Assembly: GCA_025558095.1 (NCBI GenBank)
Contig: JAIVFI010000005.1
Coordinates: forward strand, 248,001-312,000
Direction: 5' to 3'
Length of the DNA: 64,000 nucleotides
Source of the DNA: Hyaloraphidium curvatum
Lineage: Eukaryota > Monoblepharomycota > Hyaloraphidiomycetes > Hyaloraphidiales > Hyaloraphidiaceae
Of the stretch, positions 2,882-48,958 are shown piece after piece. A model generated the notes under the pieces. That model searched no databases. It was not told where the DNA came from and saw nothing but the letters and a program-made list of their open reading frames with translations. The position numbers were made by a program, and so were the translations under genes. Each line of letters opens with the position of its first letter. Position 1 is the first letter of the stretch.

Positions 2882-5399
2882 TCAACAGAATCGCCACCTG
2901 ATGGGGAAGACGCCGTCTCCCGAGGTGCTCCTGCCCAGGCGACGCAGTGCGCCGGGGGTGAAGTCGATGTTGCCCCAGCCGCAGCCTGCGCAGCGATCGG
3001 CAACATTGAAGCGGGCGGTAACGCCCCGATTAACGTCCAGGACTTCGACGCAAGCCCGAGTCGCGCACATCCAGAGCTGGTACTGTTCCGAGTTGACGGC
3101 AATGACCGGATCGTCGTCAACCACGCGATTGTCGCAGGAGCCCATGCTGCCAGGACACTGTCAGCCACGTCGCAGCGCAGGGTTACTACAGCACGCACCA
3201 ATTCCAACCGTGGTTCTGCCCAGGATCGCTTAAGGAGACTGTTAGTGTCTACTCAATGATGTCCCACCTGCAGATCCCTACCAAGGGTTGAACCAAGTTG
3301 CTCGACCACTGAACTGCCAGCTTGACGAGGGCGGAGGAGGCGGCGGCGGGGCAGGAGCCGGTGACGGAGGGGGAGGAGGAACGGGCGCGGGCGGGGGAGG
3401 CTGATCGGATCGGAGGCGTAAGCAGGATGTTCGAGCAACAATAAAGGGGCGCTTACCGGCGGGGGTCGCGGCGGCGGGGACGGCGGCTTTACAAGCTGGT
3501 GCGTTAGAGTATTCTCCGTGTAACGAAAGGCACTGTTGCTTACCGGAGGAGGCGAGGGAGGAGCGGGAGCCGGCGGCATTCCGCACACAGCAGGAGTCGA
3601 GCAGGTTCCCTGCCAGCAGCACTTGCTCTGACAGGTGTCTCCGTTCTCGCACTCGTTGCCGAGAGTGTCGTCCGAGCTCGGGGGAGGCGAAGACGGTCTG
3701 GGGTTCAGGTTTCCGCCATCGCCCTGCGAAGGAGGCGCGACCTCCTGGGGCCGATTGCCGAAGCAAACGGAATACTCCCGACAGAATCCCATGAAGCAGC
3801 ACGGGCATTCGCGGCCCGAAAGGGTGCACGAAACGTTGGGGGAGTTGCTGCCAAAGCACACCGAAACGTCCGAGCAGACACCGAGATGGCAGCAAGCGCA
3901 TTCGATCCCGGAGCCCGTGCAAGGGGTGACAGGAACCGGCGGTGGCGGAGGTGGTGGACGAGGGCGATCTCCAAAGCAGACCGACCAGTCCCTGCACCTG
4001 CCCTCGTGACAGCACTCGCATTCGATGCCGGAGCCGGTGCAGATCCTTTCAGAGGGACCGTCCCCGAAGCAGACGGAACGGTCCCTGCATTTGCCTTCGT
4101 GGCAGCACTCGCATTCAATACCGGATCCGGTGCAGGTCCTCTCGGCAGGACCGTCACCGAAGCAGACCGAGCGCTCGCGGCACTTGCCCTCGTGGCAACA
4201 CTCGCACTCGATGCCGGATCCAGTGCAGGTTTTCTCCGCGGGGCCATCGCCAAAGCAGACCGAGCGGTCGCGGCATTTGCCCTCAAAACAGCATTCACAC
4301 TCGATGCCGGAGTGGGTGCAGGTTTTGTCGCCAGAGCCGGGGCCCCCATCGCCAAAGCACACGGAGCGGTCGCGGCACTTGCCCTCGAAGCAGCACTCGC
4401 ACTCGATGCCGGAGTGAGTGCAGGTTTTGTCGCCGCTGGAGCCGGATCCTCCATCTCCGAAGCACACCGAGCGGTCGCGGCATTTGCCCTCGAAACAGCA
4501 CTCGCACTCGATGCCGGAGTGGGTGCAACTCTTGTCCGAGCCCCAGTCACCGCCGTCTCCTCCGCCATCGCCTCCGCCGTCGCCGAAGCAGACCGAGCGA
4601 TCACGGCATTTGCCTTCAAAGCAGCACTCGCACTCGATCCCGGAGTGAGTGCACTGTGGCTTTGGCCCGCCGTCGCAGTTCCGCTTCCCGTTGCGGCCGG
4701 ATCGTTTGCACTTCGAGCCGTGATCTTTGCCGCTGTCGCCCTTGTCCTTGCCCCCTTTGTCCCCCTTGTCCTTGCCCCCTTTGTCCCCCTTGTCCTTTCC
4801 CCCTTTGTCCCCCTTGTCCTTCCCGCCCTTCGAGCCGTCGCCGGTCTTGTCCCCGCGGCGGGCAAAAGAATGCAAGATGCCGCAGCGGAAATCACCGCTT
4901 CCATAGCAGAGGCCGTATTGGCGCTGACAGCCGGCTTGGCACCTGCGCGGGGATGACACCTGTCAGCTGATGACGCTGATCATTGCTGATCAAGGGTCGC
5001 TCACCCCTTCTCCTGGCTGAGCGACTCCTCGACGCAGGCGCCATTTTTACTGCAGCATTGCTCGTCGGGACAACGGGTGTCTGCCGGCGAAACGGTCAGT
5101 TCGTTCGGGATTCGAGCCGACGGTTGCAAGGGCACCCATGCCGGGTGACACCCACGGCCAAAGGAAGCGCCGCAGCGCCCGTCCGAAGAGACAGGCAGGC
5201 TCGTGCAGCCGTACGTATTCAGATCGCTGGCGAAGCTGGAGGCCAGGCGGTGGGGTTCCGGTGCGCTGCCAGACCCTTGCTCAATAGTCGCCAGCTGATC
5301 AGCGCCGCCGTCGGTGCGCGCACGCAGCGCGGCGGCCAGCGCCGTGCTGACGAGTGCGAGCTGGGCGCAGAGCACCAGCACGGGGGCGCGGAGCCGCAT
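2882..5399 (-). CDS. Secreted CBM18 / nine-fold Cys-repeat / barwin-RlpA-like protein
   Basis: Seven exons join in frame to 730 aa: 5399-5156, 5080-5005, 4942-3544, 3495-3457, 3400-3282, 3238-3199, 3157-2882. The start MRLRAPVLVL opens a signal peptide cleaved near ALA. Joining exons 1-3 gives a type-1 chitin-binding module (CBM18): DGRCGASFGHTRCPDEQCCS followed by GCQAGCQRQYGLC. Next come a Gly-Lys-Asp repeat, nine copies of a Cys motif (C-x6-C-x-CC-x4-C-x5-C), one divergent copy, and Pro-rich linkers. The C-terminal domain has VADRCAGCGWGNIDFTPGALRRL and ends IRWRFC, the signature of barwin/expansin-like double-psi beta-barrels. Likely cell-wall or extracellular, binding chitin. Least certain is exon 6, where alternative acceptors exist. 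Such architectures are known for wall and matrix proteins; the function of the repeat is unknown. Confidence 0.75.
3740..4653 (-). repeat. Nine tandem Cys-rich repeats (about 25-residue core plus linker)
   Basis: Within exon 3 of the chitin-binding gene the unit (S/T)GIECECC-x4-CRDRSVCFGD recurs nine times. The four N-terminal copies are almost identical (CTHSGIECECCFEGKC), the next three use CTGSGIECECCHEG, and the last two (CTGSGIECACCHLG, CTLSGRECPCCFMG) diverge. Linkers shorten from Gly/Asp-rich tracts to four or five residues along the array. A tenth, more distant Cys module (CQSKCCWQGTCSTPAVCG) follows. The gradient of identity suggests recent amplification at the N-terminal side. Confidence 0.85.
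4735..4830 (-). repeat. GGKDKGDK tandem repeat (24-nt unit)
   Basis: The DNA here repeats a 24-nt unit about four times and encodes GGKDKGDK in tandem between the CBM18 module and the Cys repeats. It is a hydrophilic spacer. A perfect short repeat like this is likely to vary in copy number between strains. Confidence 0.85.
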
Positions 5400-5709: not shown

Positions 5710-7111
5710 ATGGCCGAAGGAAGCGACGCCGGCGCGCAGCTCCTGCTGAAGGCGGCTGCGCGCTGCGGCCCCGCGGATGTCAGCCTCGTGCGCACCCTGC
5801 TCGAGAAGGACCCGCTGCTGGTCCACACCGCTCGCGACGCCGCGAACCACAACCGTTCGCCGCTCCATTTTGCCTGCGCTGCGGGCAGCCTGGAGGTCGT
5901 GAAGCTCCTGCTGGACAATGGAGCGCAGTGGAACGTTGTTGACGATGTGTACATCTCCGCCGGAGACTTGGCCAGGGACAATGGCCACGACGAGCTCTAC
6001 GAGTTCATGGTCACTCGCGGCGTGGAGACCGAGTTCCTGATTCGGGTGCTCGAGGACCACGATATGGAGGATGCGGACGAAGAGGGGGAGGGGGAACAAG
6101 CGGACGTTGATGCTGAAGATGTGGTGGATCAGGAGGCAGCGGAAGCCGACTCTTCGGACGCCCCAAAGAAAGACGAGGACGAGTTCACCCTTCCGAACCC
6201 CATCTTTGTCAACGGAAAGGCGGTGCAGCCGCCCTCGAAGCCCGGCACGGGCACCGACTTGGACACGTACCTTTCGAAAGAAGTGAAGTACGAGGATGAG
6301 CACGGACGGCTGCTTGACGCCAATGGGAACGCCATCGAAATGGAGTGGGAGCGGATCATTATGGACAAGCACGCCGAGGTCGTCGCGCCGGTTCCCGGTC
6401 TCTCGGTGGTGAACGTGGGGTTCGGAATGGGCATGGTCGACGAAGCGCTGCACAAGCGCGAACCTCGTCTCCACACAATCTGCGAGGCTCACCCCGTGGT
6501 CTTGGAGAGAATGTGGGTACCACTGCGGCTCTTGCGAGCTCAACCTTAATGCCGTGGCTATCGAGCAGCAAAAAGACCCCGTGGATAAGCGAGTTGCCCG
6601 CCGACCGGATCCGTATCCTCTTTGGAAAGTGGCAGGACACGTTGGCCGAGGACCTGGAGCCCTTCGACGGCATTTTCTTCGACACTTTCTCCGAGCAGTA
6701 CGACAACTCTCTCCTTCCCCTCCACCGGGATTACCTTCCCCGCCTCCTCCGCCGGCCCGATCCGTCGAAACCCGGGGACCGCGGCGGGATCTACTCGTTC
6801 TTCAACGGCTTGGGCAGCGGGAACAAATTGTGCGTGTCTCGCCCTCCGCTTCTAGGGCTCGCGCTAACCAGCTTCGTCAACTCGCCAGCTTCCACGACGT
6901 CGCCTGCCGCATCGCCGAGCTGGACCTCGAAGAGTTCGGGTTCGAGACGGAATGGGTCACGTGGGACTTTGCCGGGCCCGACGGCGAGACCGCGAGGGCT
7001 CTTGGCAAGGACGAGGGCGACAAGGTCTGGCAGGGCATCCGCTACGACTACTGGCGGCTCGGCAACAAGTACCGGTGCCCGATCGTTCGCTGGAAGGCCG
7101 CTTCCGGGTAG
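5710..7111 (+). CDS. RMT2: Protein arginine N-methyltransferase 2 (RMT2)
   Basis: Exons 5710-6512, 6569-6829 and 6889-7111 give 428 aa, the usual length for RMT2. The N-terminal ~110 residues hold ankyrin-like repeats (NRSPLHFACAAGSLEVVKLLL). The methyltransferase part has the family blocks VNVGFGMGMVDEAL (SAM site), CEAHPVVLER, FDGIFFDTFSE and YSFFNGLGSGNKF, the last restored by the second splice. RMT2 in yeast delta-N-methylates an arginine of ribosomal protein L12. An acidic linker between the two parts (residues about 115-155) is longer than I expect for the family. Identification is strong. Confidence 0.93.
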
Positions 7112-43115: not shown

Positions 43116-46100
43116 ATGCCCGTGCGGCAGGTCAAGTCGGTGCAGTTCGGCTTGCTGTCGCCCGAGGAGACGGTGGGCGGGCCCGCGGCCGCGTGTGTGC
43201 GCCTGATGGGGTGCCTGACGCGTGCAACCGTTTCGGACGCGTCGCAGGCGTCCATGTCCGTGGCCCGCATCGAGCACGCCGAGACCTACGAGGACGGCAA
43301 GCCGAAGACGGGCGGCCTTGAGGATCCGAGGCTGGGCACCGTGGACAGGAACATCAAGTGCCTTTCGTGCGGCGAGGACTCGTTCAACTGCCCCGGCCAC
43401 TTTGGGCACATCGAGCTCGCCCGGCCCGTGTTCCATGTCAGTGAGTATCGCACAGACTTGCTGGGACGGCAAACGTCCAGTTCCTGATCTGCGGGGCAGG
43501 TCTCATCGGCAAGGTCAAGAAAATCCTGGAGTGCGTCTGCTTCGAGTGCGGCAAGCTCAAGGTCGACGCCTCGAACCCCCTCTTTGCACAAAAGCGCCTG
43601 ATCAAGGACCAGAAACGGAAGTTCAAGGAGGTCTGGGACTTGGCCAAGGGCATCATGGTCTGCGAGGGCGGGGACGAGGAGGAGGACGAGTTCGGGGCGA
43701 ACGGGGATGCGCCAAAGAAAAAGTCCCACGGCGGTTGTGGCGCCGCGCAACCGAAGATCCGGAAGGATGGCTTGAAGTTGCTGGCCGTCACGACCAAGGT
43801 GGACGACGTGGGTGGCAGTCGTGCGGGCAAAGGATGTGCACGCTTCTGACCTGGCGCGCTTCGTGCAGGAATCCGGGCCGCGGCAGGACAGAAAGGTCAT
43901 CACTCCGTCCAAAGTCCGCGAGGTTTTCCGGGTGATCTCGGACCAGGATTGCCGGGACATGGGCCTGAGCCCCGAGTTTGCGCGACCCGAGTGGATGCTG
44001 GTCACGGTGCTTCCCGTTCCCCCGCCGCAGGTCCGCCCTTCGGTTTCCATGGACGGTGCATCCGGCGGCATGCGGAGCCAGGACGACCTGACCTTTAAGC
44101 TGGGCGACATCCTCAAGGCGAACATCGCCCTGAAGCGGCACGACGCCGAGAACTCGCCGGCGCACATCACGCGCGAGTTCGAGGAGATCTTGCAGTACCA
44201 CGTGGCCACGATGGTGGACAACAACATCTCCGGCATGCCGCAGGCCATGCAGAAGAGCGGTCGGCCGATCAAGTCGATCCGCCAGCGGCTGAAGGGCAAG
44301 GAGGGCCGGATCCGCGGCAACCTGATGGGCAAGCGCGTAGACTTTTCCTCCCGCACCGTCATCACGGGCGACCCAAACATTTCCATCGACGAGGTCGGCG
44401 TGCCTCGGTCGATCGCGCGGACGCTCACGTTCCCCGAGATCGTGACGCCGCACAACGTAGCGCGGCTGCAGGAGCTCGTGCGCAACGGGGCGCTGGAGCA
44501 TCCCGGCGCGAACTACATCGTGCGGCAGTCTGGGGACCGGATCAGCCTCAAGTTCGTGCCGCAGGCCGGGGACCAGCCCCTGCAGATCGGCGACACGGTG
44601 GAGAGGCACCTGCAGGACGGCGACTACGTCATCTTCAACCGGCAGCCCTCTCTGCACAAAATGTCGATGATGGGCCACCGCGTGAAGATCATGCCCTTCT
44701 CCACCTTCCGCCTCAACCTCTCCGTCACGACGCCGTACAACGCGGACTTCGACGGCGACGAAATGAACCTGCACGCCCCGCAGTCGTACGAGACCCGGGC
44801 CGAGATCAAGGAGATCATGATGGTCCCCCGGCAGATCATTTCGCCGCAGGCGAACAAGCCCGTCATGGGCATCGTGCAGGACACGCTTTGCGGGATCCGC
44901 AAGTTCACCCTCCGCGACAACATGATGACGCGCGACATGGTGATGAACATTTGCATGTGGATCCCGGACTGGGATGGCCAGCTGCCTCCGCCTGCGATCT
45001 TGAAGCCGCAGCCGCTGTGGACGGGCAAGCAGCTCATGAGCATGGTCATCCCTTCGGTACGCTCCGAGGAGCGCGTCGTTGCATTGTATGCTTAACCTGC
45101 CCGTTCTAGCGCATCAACGTCACGGGAAAGCACTCGACGCACCCCGACGATGAGCGCGACAACATTTCGCCCGGCGATACCCAGGTTGTGATTGAGGACG
45201 GCGTCGTCCTCGCGGGCATTTTGTCGAAGCGGACCGTGGGCAACTCGGCCGGCGGCATCATCCACGTCATCATGAACGAGTACGGGCCGGAGATGGCTAA
45301 GAAGTTTTTCAACGGCACGCAGCGCGTCGTGAACTACTGGCTGCTCCAGGTAAGCTGCCGGCCCCTGCGGTGCGCCCCTGCTTCCCTCCTAACCTTGCTC
45401 GAAAGAACGGCTTCTCGATCGGCATTGGCGATACCGTCGCCGACAAGGCGACGATGCACCAAATCAACCAGATCCTGAAGCGCGCCAAGGAGGACGTGGG
45501 GGAAACCATTGCGCGGGCGCAGCAGAACCAGCTCGAGCCCCAGCCCGGTATGACGATCCGCGAGACGTTCGAGAGCGTGGTGAACAAGGTACGTAAGGAA
45601 ACGAAACCCGCAAAAGGGCTTTGTCTCACGCGGCATGTGCGCGAAGATCCTGAACAAGGCGCGAGAGGACGCCGGCAAAGCCGCGACCAAGTCCCTGGCG
45701 CCGTTCAACAACGCGAAGCAGATGGTCGACGCCGGCTCCAAGGGCAGCGAGATCAACATTTCGCAGATGGCCGCCTGTGTGGGGCAGCAGAACGTGGAGG
45801 GGAAGCGTATACCCTTTGGCTTCCGCCTGCGGACTCTGCCGCACTTTACGAAGGACGACCAGTCGCCCGAGTCGCGCGGTTTCGTCGAGAACTCGTACCT
45901 GCGCGGGTTGACCCCTCAGGAGTTTTTCTTCCACGCGATGGGCGGTCGCGAGGGTCTCATCGACACGGCCGTCAAGACGGCCGAGACCGGCTACATCCAA
46001 CGGCGTCTCGTCAAGGCGCTCGAGGACGTAATGGTCAAGTACGACGGGACCGTGCGCAACTCCCTCGGCCACGTGATCCAGTTCGCGTACGGGGAGGACG

Positions 46101-48958
46101 GGATGGACGCCGTGGGGGTCGAGCGCCAGGACCTCGAGATCCTCCGCATGAGCGACATCAGCTTCAAGCGCCGCTACGAGTTCAACCTCCAGGGCAGGGA
46201 CAGGCAGCTGTTGCAGCGTATCCTGCGCCCCGACGCCAGGGCCTTGCTGGATTGGGCCGAGACCCAGGAGGCGGTGGACGGCGAATTTGAGCAGCTCGAG
46301 AATGACCGCAAGGTTCTGCGCAAGGACATTTTCCCCAGTGGCGAGAGCAGCTGGCCCTTGCCGGGCAATCTGCGCCGCTTGATCGACAACGCTCGCATCC
46401 AGTTCGGGCTGTCGGATCGTGCAAAGACGGACCTGCTTCCGACCAAGATCGTGCAGGACGTGCGCGCGCTGCTCGCCGAGTGCGTCGTGGTGCCCGGGAC
46501 GGACGGCCTCAGCCGGCAGGCGCAGGCGAACGCGACCCTGCTCTGGCAGATCCTGGTCCGCAGCACTCTGGCGTCCAAGCGCGTGCTGAGCGAGTACCGG
46601 CTCACTTCGGAGGCCTTCGAGTTCGTCGTCGGCGAGATCAAGACGAAGTTCATGTGGGCCAAGGTCCAGGGCGGCGAGATGGTCGGCACGATCGCGGCAC
46701 AGTCAATCGGCGAGCCGGCGACGCAGATGACGCTCAACACCTTCCACTACGCCGGTGTCTCGTCCAAGAACGTGACCCTCGGTGTCCCGCGGCTCAAGGA
46801 GATCATCAACGTCGCCACCGCGATCAAGACGCCGTCGCTCACTATCTACCTGGACGAGAAGCACAGGAAAGAGCTGAGCACGGCCAAGGTCATCCAGAGC
46901 AAGCTCGAGTACACGACGCTGCGCAAGATCGCGCAGGCCACCGAGATCTACTACGACCCGGATCCGCGCAACACGGTCGTGGAGGAGGATCGGGAGTTCC
47001 TGGACTCGTACTGGGAGATGGAGGAGGACGAGAATCTGACGAACAACCTGAGCCCTTGGCTGCTCCGCATCATCCTCGACCGGAACCGCAAGCTCGACAA
47101 GCAGATCAGCTTGAACGAGATCGCATCGGCCATCGCCGGCGCGTTCGGCGGCGAGAACATCGCGGTCTTCCATTCGGACGACAACGCAACAAAGCCCGTG
47201 CTGCACGTCCGGATCCGGAAGGACGTCAAGGAGCAGATCGATGAGGAGGAAAAGGTGGACGAGGAGCTCATCCTCCGCAAGATCGAGAGCAACATCATGA
47301 ACCAGCTCAAGCTCGGCGGTATCGAGGGCATCACGCGCGTGTACATCAACGACGCCAAGGTCTCCAAGATCGGGGACAACGGCGACTACATCCAGGACAA
47401 GGAGTTCATCCTCGAGACGGACGGCATCAACCTCAAGGAGGTCATGGCGGCCGAGGGCGTGGACTACAGCCGCACGTACTCCAACAACCCCGTGGAGATC
47501 ATGCAGGTCCTGGGCGTCGAGGCTGCGCGGAACGCCCTGCTCCGGGAGCTGCGCAAGGTCATCGAGTTTGACGGCTCGTACGTCAACTACCGCCACCTCG
47601 CGCTGCTGTGCGACGTCATGACGCACAAGGGCACCATGATGGCCATCACGCGGCACGGCATCAACCGCGCCGAGACCGGTGCCCTCGCGCGGTGCTCGTT
47701 CGAGGAGACGGTGGAGATCCTCGTGGATGCGGCTTCGGTCGGGGAGAACGACCCCATGAAGGGCGTCAGCGAGGCCATCATCATGGGCCAGCTCGCGCCC
47801 CTGGGCACGGGCGAGTTCGACCTGCTGCTCGACGAGACCAAGCTCAGCAAGGCGCGGCCGATGGCGGCTCCCGGCGGCATGTACGGCATGGAGATGGACA
47901 CCTTTGGCGCCCGAACTCCGGCGTACAACGAGGGCGGGATGTCGCCTTCGCAGATGCGGTACAAGCAGTACTCGCCCGTGCACCGGCAGGACGTGCAGAA
48001 CCAGGAGATCATCTTCTCCCCGATCGGTGCGGACGGCAGGTGGACGCCGGGCAGGACGGGTTGGTCGCCGGCCGGTCCCCTCGGGACCCCGAGGTACTCG
48101 GTAAGTCGATATTTTGGGCTTCCCGCACCGTGTGTGCTGATCCGATTGCCGCGCAGCCGACTTCGCCGAGCTATTCTCCGGCCCGGGGAGGGTACAGCCC
48201 CGCCAGCCCGTCGTACAGCCCGACGAGCCCGTCCTACAGCCCCACGAGCCCGTCGTACAGCCCGACAAGCCCGTCCTACAGCCCTACCAGCCCGTGAGTC
48301 ACGGTTGCGCGGTCGTGTGGCTGCGACCGGTTGACACGTTCCTCTCTTTCAGCTCCTACAGCCCTGCGAGCCCTTCCTACAGTCCGACGTCGCCGTCGTA
48401 CGAGCAGATCACCTCTCCGCGGTACTCGTGAGCATCTCCCGCGCCGAGTGTTCCTTCGCACCTGACCTGTTCGCGCGCAGTCCGACGTCTCCGCAGTTCT
48501 CCCCCGGCAGCCCTGCCGGACGGCGCCCGGGCTACAGCCCCACCTCCCCCTCCTACAGCCCGACGTCTCCGCAGTTCAGCCCGCACTCCCCCGCCGGGCG
48601 CAACATGGCGTCCTCGCCCGCCTACTCGCCCACCTCGCCGCAGCTCTCGCCGTACAGCCCCAAGGCGTACAGCCCCGCGAGCCCGGCCTACTCTGCCAAC
48701 TATTCGCCGCAGAGCCCGCGCCCGCTGGGCACGTCGCCCGCGGGGCGCGTGCTGGCGACGTCGCCGCGCATCGCGTATGCGCCCGTCAGCCCCGCGGCGC
48801 CCTCGCCGGCATACTCGCCGACCTCGCCGGCCTACCAGCCGGCGTCTCCCGCGAACCCGTGAGTTGCTTGCCGGCGCCCGCCGGCTGTTCGGAACGTCTG
48901 ACGCGGGCCCCGCAGATCCACCAACGGACAGCAGAAAACCACCGACGCACGGCGCTGA
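43116..48958 (+). CDS. RPB1: RNA polymerase II largest subunit (RPB1)
   Basis: Ten exons join in frame to 1,776 aa: 43116-43440, 43500-43807, 43869-45056, 45110-45349, 45406-45588, 45647-48100, 48157-48293, 48353-48427, 48481-48858 and 48916-48958. [18 protein letters not shown] and [19 protein letters not shown] form the clamp start. The catalytic loop reads [10 protein letters not shown] (three metal-binding Asp), [11 protein letters not shown] is the lid/rudder area, and [23 protein letters not shown] closes the trigger-loop region. The CTD has roughly 20 heptads of YSPTSPS type, many degenerate ([21 protein letters not shown]), and ends [13 protein letters not shown] via a last short exon. 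The final intron is my inference; without it the protein stops at NP (48862). Confidence 0.97.

What the first reader, a model, noticed from the sequence alone, without database searches (positions are those of the whole stretch)
2882..5399. New domain order: CBM18, Gly-Lys-Asp spacer, nine Cys repeats, barwin/RlpA-like end
I know of CBM18 arrays and of barwin/expansin domains in fungi, but the C-x6-C-x-CC-x4-C-x5-C repeat array between them is not one I can name. Near-identical N-terminal copies show recent amplification. It may be a chitin-wall remodelling or shielding protein with a modular Cys-knot-like stalk.
Basis: partly seen in the sequence, partly recalled or inferred. Interest (0 to 1): 0.75.

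Follow-up and report, generated by a model that had tools for sequence, protein, structure and literature searches.

The report
Fungal wall protein with knottin-like repeats
This gene encodes a secreted fungal cell-wall protein carrying ten copies of a small six-cysteine module that no searched database describes, and because the same module is fused to many other wall-modifying enzymes across this genome it may be a new kind of wall-binding tag.

Summary
On the minus strand, 5399-2882, a seven-exon gene encodes 723 aa: signal peptide, CBM18-like domain, Gly-Lys-Asp spacer, nine C-x6-C-x-CC-x4-C-x5-C repeats, Pro-rich linker and a loosenin-like double-psi beta-barrel (DPBB). I add a tenth, divergent repeat with C-x3-CC spacing. 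The repeats are a derived form of a module spread through this 31.9 Mb genome: at least 84 intact copies in 33 other fetched loci, usual form GxxC-x5-8-C-x3-CC-x4-C-x5-C[FYW]. Partners include chitin deacetylases, CRH-like GH16, a CE2 esterase, other DPBB proteins, a beta-lactamase-fold enzyme and a hemerythrin. The module has no significant match in Pfam, NCBIfam or PDB sequences; strict DNA scans of prokaryotes and viruses gave chance-level hits or none. The domain order is not unique: paralogues repeat it with two modules. Repeats 1-4 are identical in protein but differ at 6-9 of about 14 synonymous sites, so they are kept alike by selection rather than freshly amplified. The CBM18 has lost its ligand-binding aromatics. 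Best reading: a small disulfide-rich wall-binding module standing in for CBM18, used here as a multivalent anchor for a non-lytic wall-loosening domain. Binding is inferred, not shown. Other eukaryotes could not be searched.

The parts
5331..5399 (-). Signal peptide, about 23 aa (MRLRAPVLVLCAQLALVSTALAA)
   Evidence: Sequence shows a basic start, hydrophobic core and AxA-type end; no predictor was run
5156..5399 (-). Exon 1
5081..5155 (-). Intron 1 (GTGGGT...CAG, 75 nt)
   Evidence: its removal restores the CBM18 cysteine spacing and a match to pokeweed lectin-C
5005..5080 (-). Exon 2
4879..5189 (-). CBM18/hevein-like domain (aa 71-128, split over exons 1-3); cysteines kept, ligand-binding aromatics lost (CCSKNGAC)
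   Evidence: Pfam PF00187 E=0.021, below cut-off; PDB 1ulk E=9.4e-7; paralogue alignment
3544..4942 (-). Exon 3, holding the spacer and all ten repeats
4734..4830 (-). Gly-Lys-Asp spacer, 24-bp tandem repeat, 4.0 copies, 94% match
4582..4653 (-). Repeat 1 CTHSGIECECCFEGKCRDRSVCFG
4456..4527 (-). Repeat 2, protein identical to repeat 1
4351..4422 (-). Repeat 3, protein identical to repeat 1
4249..4320 (-). Repeat 4, protein identical to repeat 1
4156..4227 (-). Repeat 5 CTGSGIECECCHEGKCRERSVCFG
4063..4134 (-). Repeat 6 CTGSGIECECCHEGKCRDRSVCFG
3970..4041 (-). Repeat 7 CTGSGIECECCHEGRCRDWSVCFG
3850..3921 (-). Repeat 8 CTGSGIECACCHLGVCSDVSVCFG
3757..3828 (-). Repeat 9 CTLSGRECPCCFMGFCREYSVCFG
3583..3651 (-). 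Repeat 10, divergent, with the C-x3-CC spacing usual elsewhere in the genome (CENGDTCQSKCCWQGTCSTPAVC)
   Evidence: weaker profile support p=0.03
3326..3582 (-). Pro-rich linker (end of exon 3, exon 4, start of exon 5, with introns)
2882..3325 (-). Double-psi beta-barrel (RlpA/loosenin-like), over exons 5-7, ending at the stop codon
   Evidence: PDB 9ce9 E=7.3e-9, 4jcw E=4.6e-6; Pfam DPBB_1 only E=0.052, below cut-off

Best explanation
A secreted, multivalent cell-wall protein of a fungus. Its repeat is a genome-wide six-cysteine, knottin-like module of about 26-30 residues that probably works as a small wall-polysaccharide binding tag (chitin or chitin-associated glucan), in the place where related enzymes usually carry CBM18. 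In this gene the layout CBM18 - two modules - Pro-linker - DPBB, seen in paralogues, was extended to ten modules, the CBM18 lost its sugar-stacking aromatics, and the array took over anchoring. The C-terminal DPBB keeps the Thr and Asp that non-lytic expansins and loosenins use, so it would loosen chitin/glucan contacts without cutting while the array holds it in the wall. Shown: gene structure, domain order, homology of the modules across the genome, partner enzymes, constraint on the repeats, loss of CBM18 aromatics, conserved DPBB Asp. Inferred: cystine-knot pairing, polysaccharide binding, wall loosening, direction of the evolutionary change.
For: Module family: the repeat query finds 17 places in the genome, the CE2-gene repeat query 39; 84 intact modules in 33 loci outside the window; the pattern C-x-[ST]-G-CC-x4-C occurs 85 times against 19 for the reversed control. 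Partners are mostly wall-polysaccharide enzymes: CE4 deacetylases on C39, C17, C23, C28, CE2/GDSL on C24, GH16 on C35, C38, C13, the C13 one closest to Aspergillus Crf1 (6ibu), DPBB on C5, C9, C32, C19 and possibly C38. CBM18 and DPBB also occur together without modules on C29. An aromatic follows the sixth cysteine in 64 of 84 modules. Repeats 1-4: dN 0, dS 0.6-1.4. The DPBB Asp in GNIDFTP aligns with Asp in 9ce9 and 4jcw; loosenins bind alpha-chitin more than cellulose and use a Thr-Asp pair without lysis (PMC9888185). CBM18 aromatics absent.
Against: No binding data. The window repeats carry few aromatics and are rich in Glu, Asp, Arg and Lys, unlike typical chitin binders. Some partners are not carbohydrate enzymes (beta-lactamase-fold on C8, hemerythrin on C27, proteins with transmembrane segments on C16 and C38). 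AF2 models are weak (pLDDT 77.8 and 67.0) and Foldseek finds no PDB match, so the knot is not shown. Frames are read from DNA without transcripts.
Confidence: 0.5

Rival explanations
1. The modules are rigid, protease-resistant spacers or wall structural units, a disulfide-stiffened stalk that positions the DPBB, with no ligand.
For: Tandem array flanked by spacer and Pro-linker; near-regular period of 93-105 bp for much of the array; few aromatics in the window repeats; array length varies from 1 to 10 among paralogues.
Against: Non-cysteine residues, too, are held constant while synonymous sites diverge. In other genes a single module sits at one end of an enzyme (C28, C13), where a stalk has little purpose.
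Confidence: 0.2
2. The modules are protein-protein docking domains, working like the dockerins of anaerobic gut fungi: small cysteine-rich tandem domains on many wall-degrading enzymes that bind a scaffold.
For: Same logic: 1-5 small Cys-rich copies on diverse CAZymes, esterases and expansin-like proteins; non-carbohydrate partners would fit too.
Against: No Pfam dockerin/CBM10 match; no scaffold was looked for or found; the partners that can be named are mostly fungal-wall remodelling rather than plant-biomass enzymes.
Confidence: 0.13
3. The modules are knottin-type inhibitors or shields (of proteases or foreign chitinases), like QID74 of Trichoderma, which protects the wall from chitinase.
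For: The C-C-CC-C-C order is that of inhibitor knottins and conotoxins (only a non-significant Pfam conotoxin hit, E=1.5). Short secreted proteins with little beyond a signal peptide and two modules seem to exist (C12, C16). QID74 shows that Cys-rich repeat arrays can shield walls (PMC13170347).
Against: QID74 repeats are 59 aa with eight cysteines and NGKQCVCPKGQVW motifs, so they are a different family. Fusion to many of the fungus's own enzymes is odd for an inhibitor.
Confidence: 0.1

Closest known systems
Loosenins and loosenin-like proteins (single-domain DPBB, expansin-related)
   Same: Secreted fungal DPBB with conserved Thr and Asp; related to solved DPBB domains by sequence (9ce9 E=7.3e-9); loosenin-like proteins are reported to bind chitin (PMC9888185)
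   Different: Loosenins are essentially the DPBB alone; here it follows a CBM18-like domain and ten Cys modules; no D2/CBM63
CBM18 / hevein domain (PF00187)
   Same: N-terminal domain keeps its cysteines and matches lectin-C; CBM18 is widespread in this genome (33 matches) and is joined to DPBB on C29
   Different: Window copy is below the Pfam cut-off and lacks the stacking aromatics; the ten repeats are not CBM18
CBM18 arrays of Batrachochytrium dendrobatidis
   Same: Expanded Cys-rich arrays, up to 11 per gene, joined to deacetylases or alone (PMC3569864)
   Different: Different module: hevein pattern with CCS there, six cysteines C-x6-C-x1/3-CC-x4-C-x5-C here
CBM1, the small fungal cellulose-binding module (from own knowledge)
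   Same: About 36 aa, disulfide-rich, linked to many secreted enzymes by Pro/Ser-rich linkers
   Different: No sequence match; different cysteine pattern; not in long tandem arrays
QID74 cysteine-rich repeats of Trichoderma
   Same: Secreted tandem Cys-rich wall protein (PMC13170347)
   Different: 59-aa repeats, eight cysteines, other motifs

Membership tests
CBM18 | Hevein cysteine framework CG...C...CCS..G.C...C...C | tested here: met
   Aligned with paralogues and with 1ulk at E=9.4e-7 after intron 1 is removed
CBM18 | Score above Pfam PF00187 cut-off | tested here: not met
   15.5 bits against 27.8; paralogue C29 passes with 32.4
CBM18 | Stacking aromatics around the CCS motif | tested here: not met
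   CCSKNGAC in place of CCS-x-[YW]-G-[YFW]-C; so CBM18-derived, probably not a chitin binder
Expansin/loosenin DPBB | Significant similarity to solved DPBB domains | tested here: met
   9ce9 7.3e-9, 4jcw 4.6e-6; Pfam DPBB_1 0.052, below cut-off
Expansin/loosenin DPBB | Asp equivalent to BsEXLX1 Asp82 | tested here: met
   Asp of GNIDFTP aligns with Asp in 9ce9 and 4jcw; residue role from PMC9888185
Expansin/loosenin DPBB | Thr equivalent to BsEXLX1 Thr12 | tested here: inconclusive
   A Thr is present in GRATWF at the expected motif, but it lies outside the aligned part
Full expansin | Second domain D2/CBM63 | tested here: not met
   The protein ends two residues after the DPBB match
Barwin (PF00967) | Score above Pfam cut-off | tested here: not met
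   No Barwin hit for the window domain; paralogue C20 15.7 bits against 21
Knottin / inhibitor cystine knot | Six cysteines in order C-C-CC-C-C | tested here: met
   All nine repeats, the tenth, and 84 genome modules
Knottin / inhibitor cystine knot | Disulfides 1-4, 2-5, 3-6 threaded as a knot | tested here: inconclusive
   AF2 pLDDT 77.8 and 67.0, pairing not readable from the output; no Foldseek match
Known Cys-rich repeat families in Pfam or NCBIfam | Significant match of the repeat | tested here: not met
   Best are Toxin_19 E=1.5 and Colipase-like E=0.13, both below cut-off; NCBIfam none
Fungal dockerin / CBM10 | Pfam match | tested here: not met
   No hit
Carbohydrate-binding module (any CAZy family) | Demonstrated binding to a polysaccharide | not testable with these tools
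   Needs protein

The most novel reading that the evidence does not exclude
The repeat founds a new family of very small carbohydrate-binding modules, a knottin-type chitin/wall binder that has spread to at least 34 places in one fungal genome and stands in for CBM18 and CBM1, with this gene as its most extended, ten-module form with a secondarily shortened second loop.
Probability: 0.4. Interest if true: 0.75.

Novelty: new variant of a known kind. Interest (0 to 1): 0.6.

Why it matters
Fungal wall enzymes are usually targeted by a short list of known binding modules. A 26-30 residue module used in dozens of genes yet absent from Pfam would be a new targeting device, small enough to make synthetically, and would give a likely role to many proteins now annotated as hypothetical. 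The deacetylase, CRH-like GH16 and loosenin-like partners make the target directly testable. The contrast between identical protein repeats and divergent synonymous sites suggests that each copy matters.

Tried and rejected
Six-exon model: rejected, since it leaves 25 extra residues inside the CBM18; the seven-exon model fits. Recent DNA amplification of repeats 1-4: rejected by synonymous divergence. Prokaryotic origin of the module: 33 pattern stretches but no relative, and a stricter pattern gave 8 lone hits in 257 Gb, about what chance gives by my rough estimate. Viral contigs: none. Two-module alignment search failed because no stretch was conserved enough. Radial-spoke search was uninformative, as nothing rang in the controls either. 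Structure: no Foldseek match for repeat 5; the model of repeat 10 was too weak to search. Literature search for the cysteine pattern found only one ant-venom paper. The glycosidase-like look of the C41 and C11 partners was not confirmed by Pfam.

Full report
Gene. The minus strand from 5399 to 2882 encodes a protein of 723 residues in seven exons. I first built six exons. The CBM18 then had a 25-residue interruption that contains a good donor (GTGGGT), a CTGAC branch-like motif and a CAG acceptor. Removing it (5155-5081) gives DGRCGASFGHTRCPDEQCCSKNGACVEE, which matches pokeweed lectin-C at E=9.4e-7 and aligns with paralogues on C9, C32 and C29. Introns 5 and 6 are supported by the C20 paralogue, where GRATWFNPCDPAQNHGWSCMGSCDN is read without a break.

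Repeats. Nine units fit C-x6-C-x-CC-x4-C-x5-C exactly. A tenth, at 3651-3583, has C-x5-C-x3-CC-x4-C-x5-C. Repeats 1-4 are identical over 24 residues, yet each pair differs at 6 to 9 of about 14.3 synonymous sites: dS 0.61-1.36, dN 0 (Nei-Gojobori; short sequences, so the values are rough). This points to strong purifying selection, not a fresh amplification. The Gly-Lys-Asp spacer, by contrast, is a 24-bp tandem repeat at 94% match.

The repeat is a genome-wide module. The window is G000:C5:248001-312000 of a 31.9 Mb, 55-contig assembly. A search with four window repeats found 17 places on 12 contigs; a search with the repeats of the C24 gene found 39, including the window at E=8e-17. A DNA pattern for C-x-[ST]-G-CC-x4-C has 85 matches against 19 for the reversed control pattern, a rough baseline. 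In 33 fetched loci outside the window I count 84 intact modules; loop 2 is three residues in 80, four in three, and one residue in one only, in the hemerythrin gene on C27. So the C-x-CC form in the window is the rare, probably derived variant, and the tenth window unit keeps the usual loop. To test homology beyond the cysteines, I made a profile of non-cysteine columns from the canonical modules outside the window and shuffled the non-cysteine residues of window repeats: the five distinct types tested (repeats 1-4, 5, 7, 8, 9) beat all 20,000 shuffles; repeat 10 gives p=0.03.

Partners. Pfam shows CE4 polysaccharide deacetylase on C39, C17, C23 and C28; CE2 N-terminal domain plus GDSL on C24; GH16 on C38, C35 and C13, the last closest to Aspergillus Crf1 (6ibu; a CRH enzyme, from own knowledge a chitin-glucan transglycosylase); a beta-lactamase-fold enzyme on C8 and a hemerythrin on C27. 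On C9 and C32 the order is CBM18, two modules, Pro-linker, DPBB, so the window architecture is an expanded form of one already present. C29 has CBM18 and DPBB without modules. From own knowledge, CRH enzymes and chitin deacetylases often carry CBM18; the module sits where CBM18 would. CBM18 itself is common in this genome, with 33 matches.

DPBB. The C-terminal domain matches 9ce9 at 7.3e-9 and 4jcw at 4.6e-6, but Pfam DPBB_1 only at 0.052. The Asp of GNIDFTP aligns with the Asp of both; in the near-identical chain 4js7 that position is Asn. PMC9888185 reports that the equivalent Asp82 and Thr12 are the presumptive active pair of non-lytic expansins and that loosenin-like proteins bind alpha-chitin better than cellulose. 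The window has a Thr in GRATWF at the matching motif, outside the aligned stretch. There is no second expansin domain.

CBM18. Its cysteines are kept, but the aromatics that stack on sugar in hevein and wheat-germ lectin (CCS-x-[WY]-G-[WYF]-C) are Asn and Ala in the window (their role in binding is from own knowledge). Chitin binding by this domain is doubtful, which fits a transfer of anchoring to the repeat array (inference).

Novelty search. No Pfam match for the repeats above cut-off, no NCBIfam match, no PDB sequence match (one search gives only a chance hit at E=1). Strict patterns gave no viral hit and eight scattered single hits in 257 Gb of prokaryote DNA. A text search for the cysteine pattern gave one unrelated venom paper. 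Other eukaryotes cannot be searched here, so the spread of the module among fungi is unknown, and it may be known in databases I could not reach.

Structure. AF2 of one repeat, with only the window's repeats as alignment, gives pLDDT 77.8 with two short strands and a helix turn; no Foldseek match. The tenth repeat is weaker (67.0). The cystine knot is therefore inferred from cysteine order, not shown.

Verdict. Observation confirmed and extended. The likely mechanism is a multivalent wall anchor carrying a non-lytic loosening domain. The most interesting part is not the domain order but the module: small, undescribed in the libraries searched, and spread over dozens of wall-related genes in one genome.

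Noticed in passing
G000:C27:59409-59624 (L009): A hemerythrin-domain protein with one or two modules of the short C-x-CC type, the only other place found with the window's variant spacing.
   Followed up: partly
G000:C38:318000-323500 (L079): A long frame with a transmembrane-like segment and at least seven modules; a DPBB match lies close by at C38:320336-320581, perhaps a membrane-anchored loosenin-like protein.
   Followed up: partly
G000:C4:602984, C7:188471, C9:707300, C19:571357, C3:365147 (L062-L065, L072): A subfamily of large proteins with about three N-terminal modules followed by a conserved CDHVFVCGQCIPANSE-type region; the one tested (C9) has no Pfam match.
   Followed up: partly
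G000:C41:22183 and C11:208238 (L013, L081): Two paralogues with C-terminal modules after a domain that looks like a beta-propeller glycosidase (SHSFDEGITWEDRG), not recognised by Pfam.
   Followed up: partly
G000, Chitin_bind_1 search: CBM18 is itself expanded here, 33 matches, several in tandem in one place (C38:11564-12411, C43:429601-430262).
   Followed up: no
window 43812-48334 +: Reading frames of an RNA polymerase largest subunit (RPB1-like); CTD heptads are not obvious in the listed frame and may lie in another exon.
   Followed up: no
window 5710-7111 +: Ankyrin plus methyltransferase gene resembling fungal RMT2, divergently placed next to this gene.
   Followed up: no
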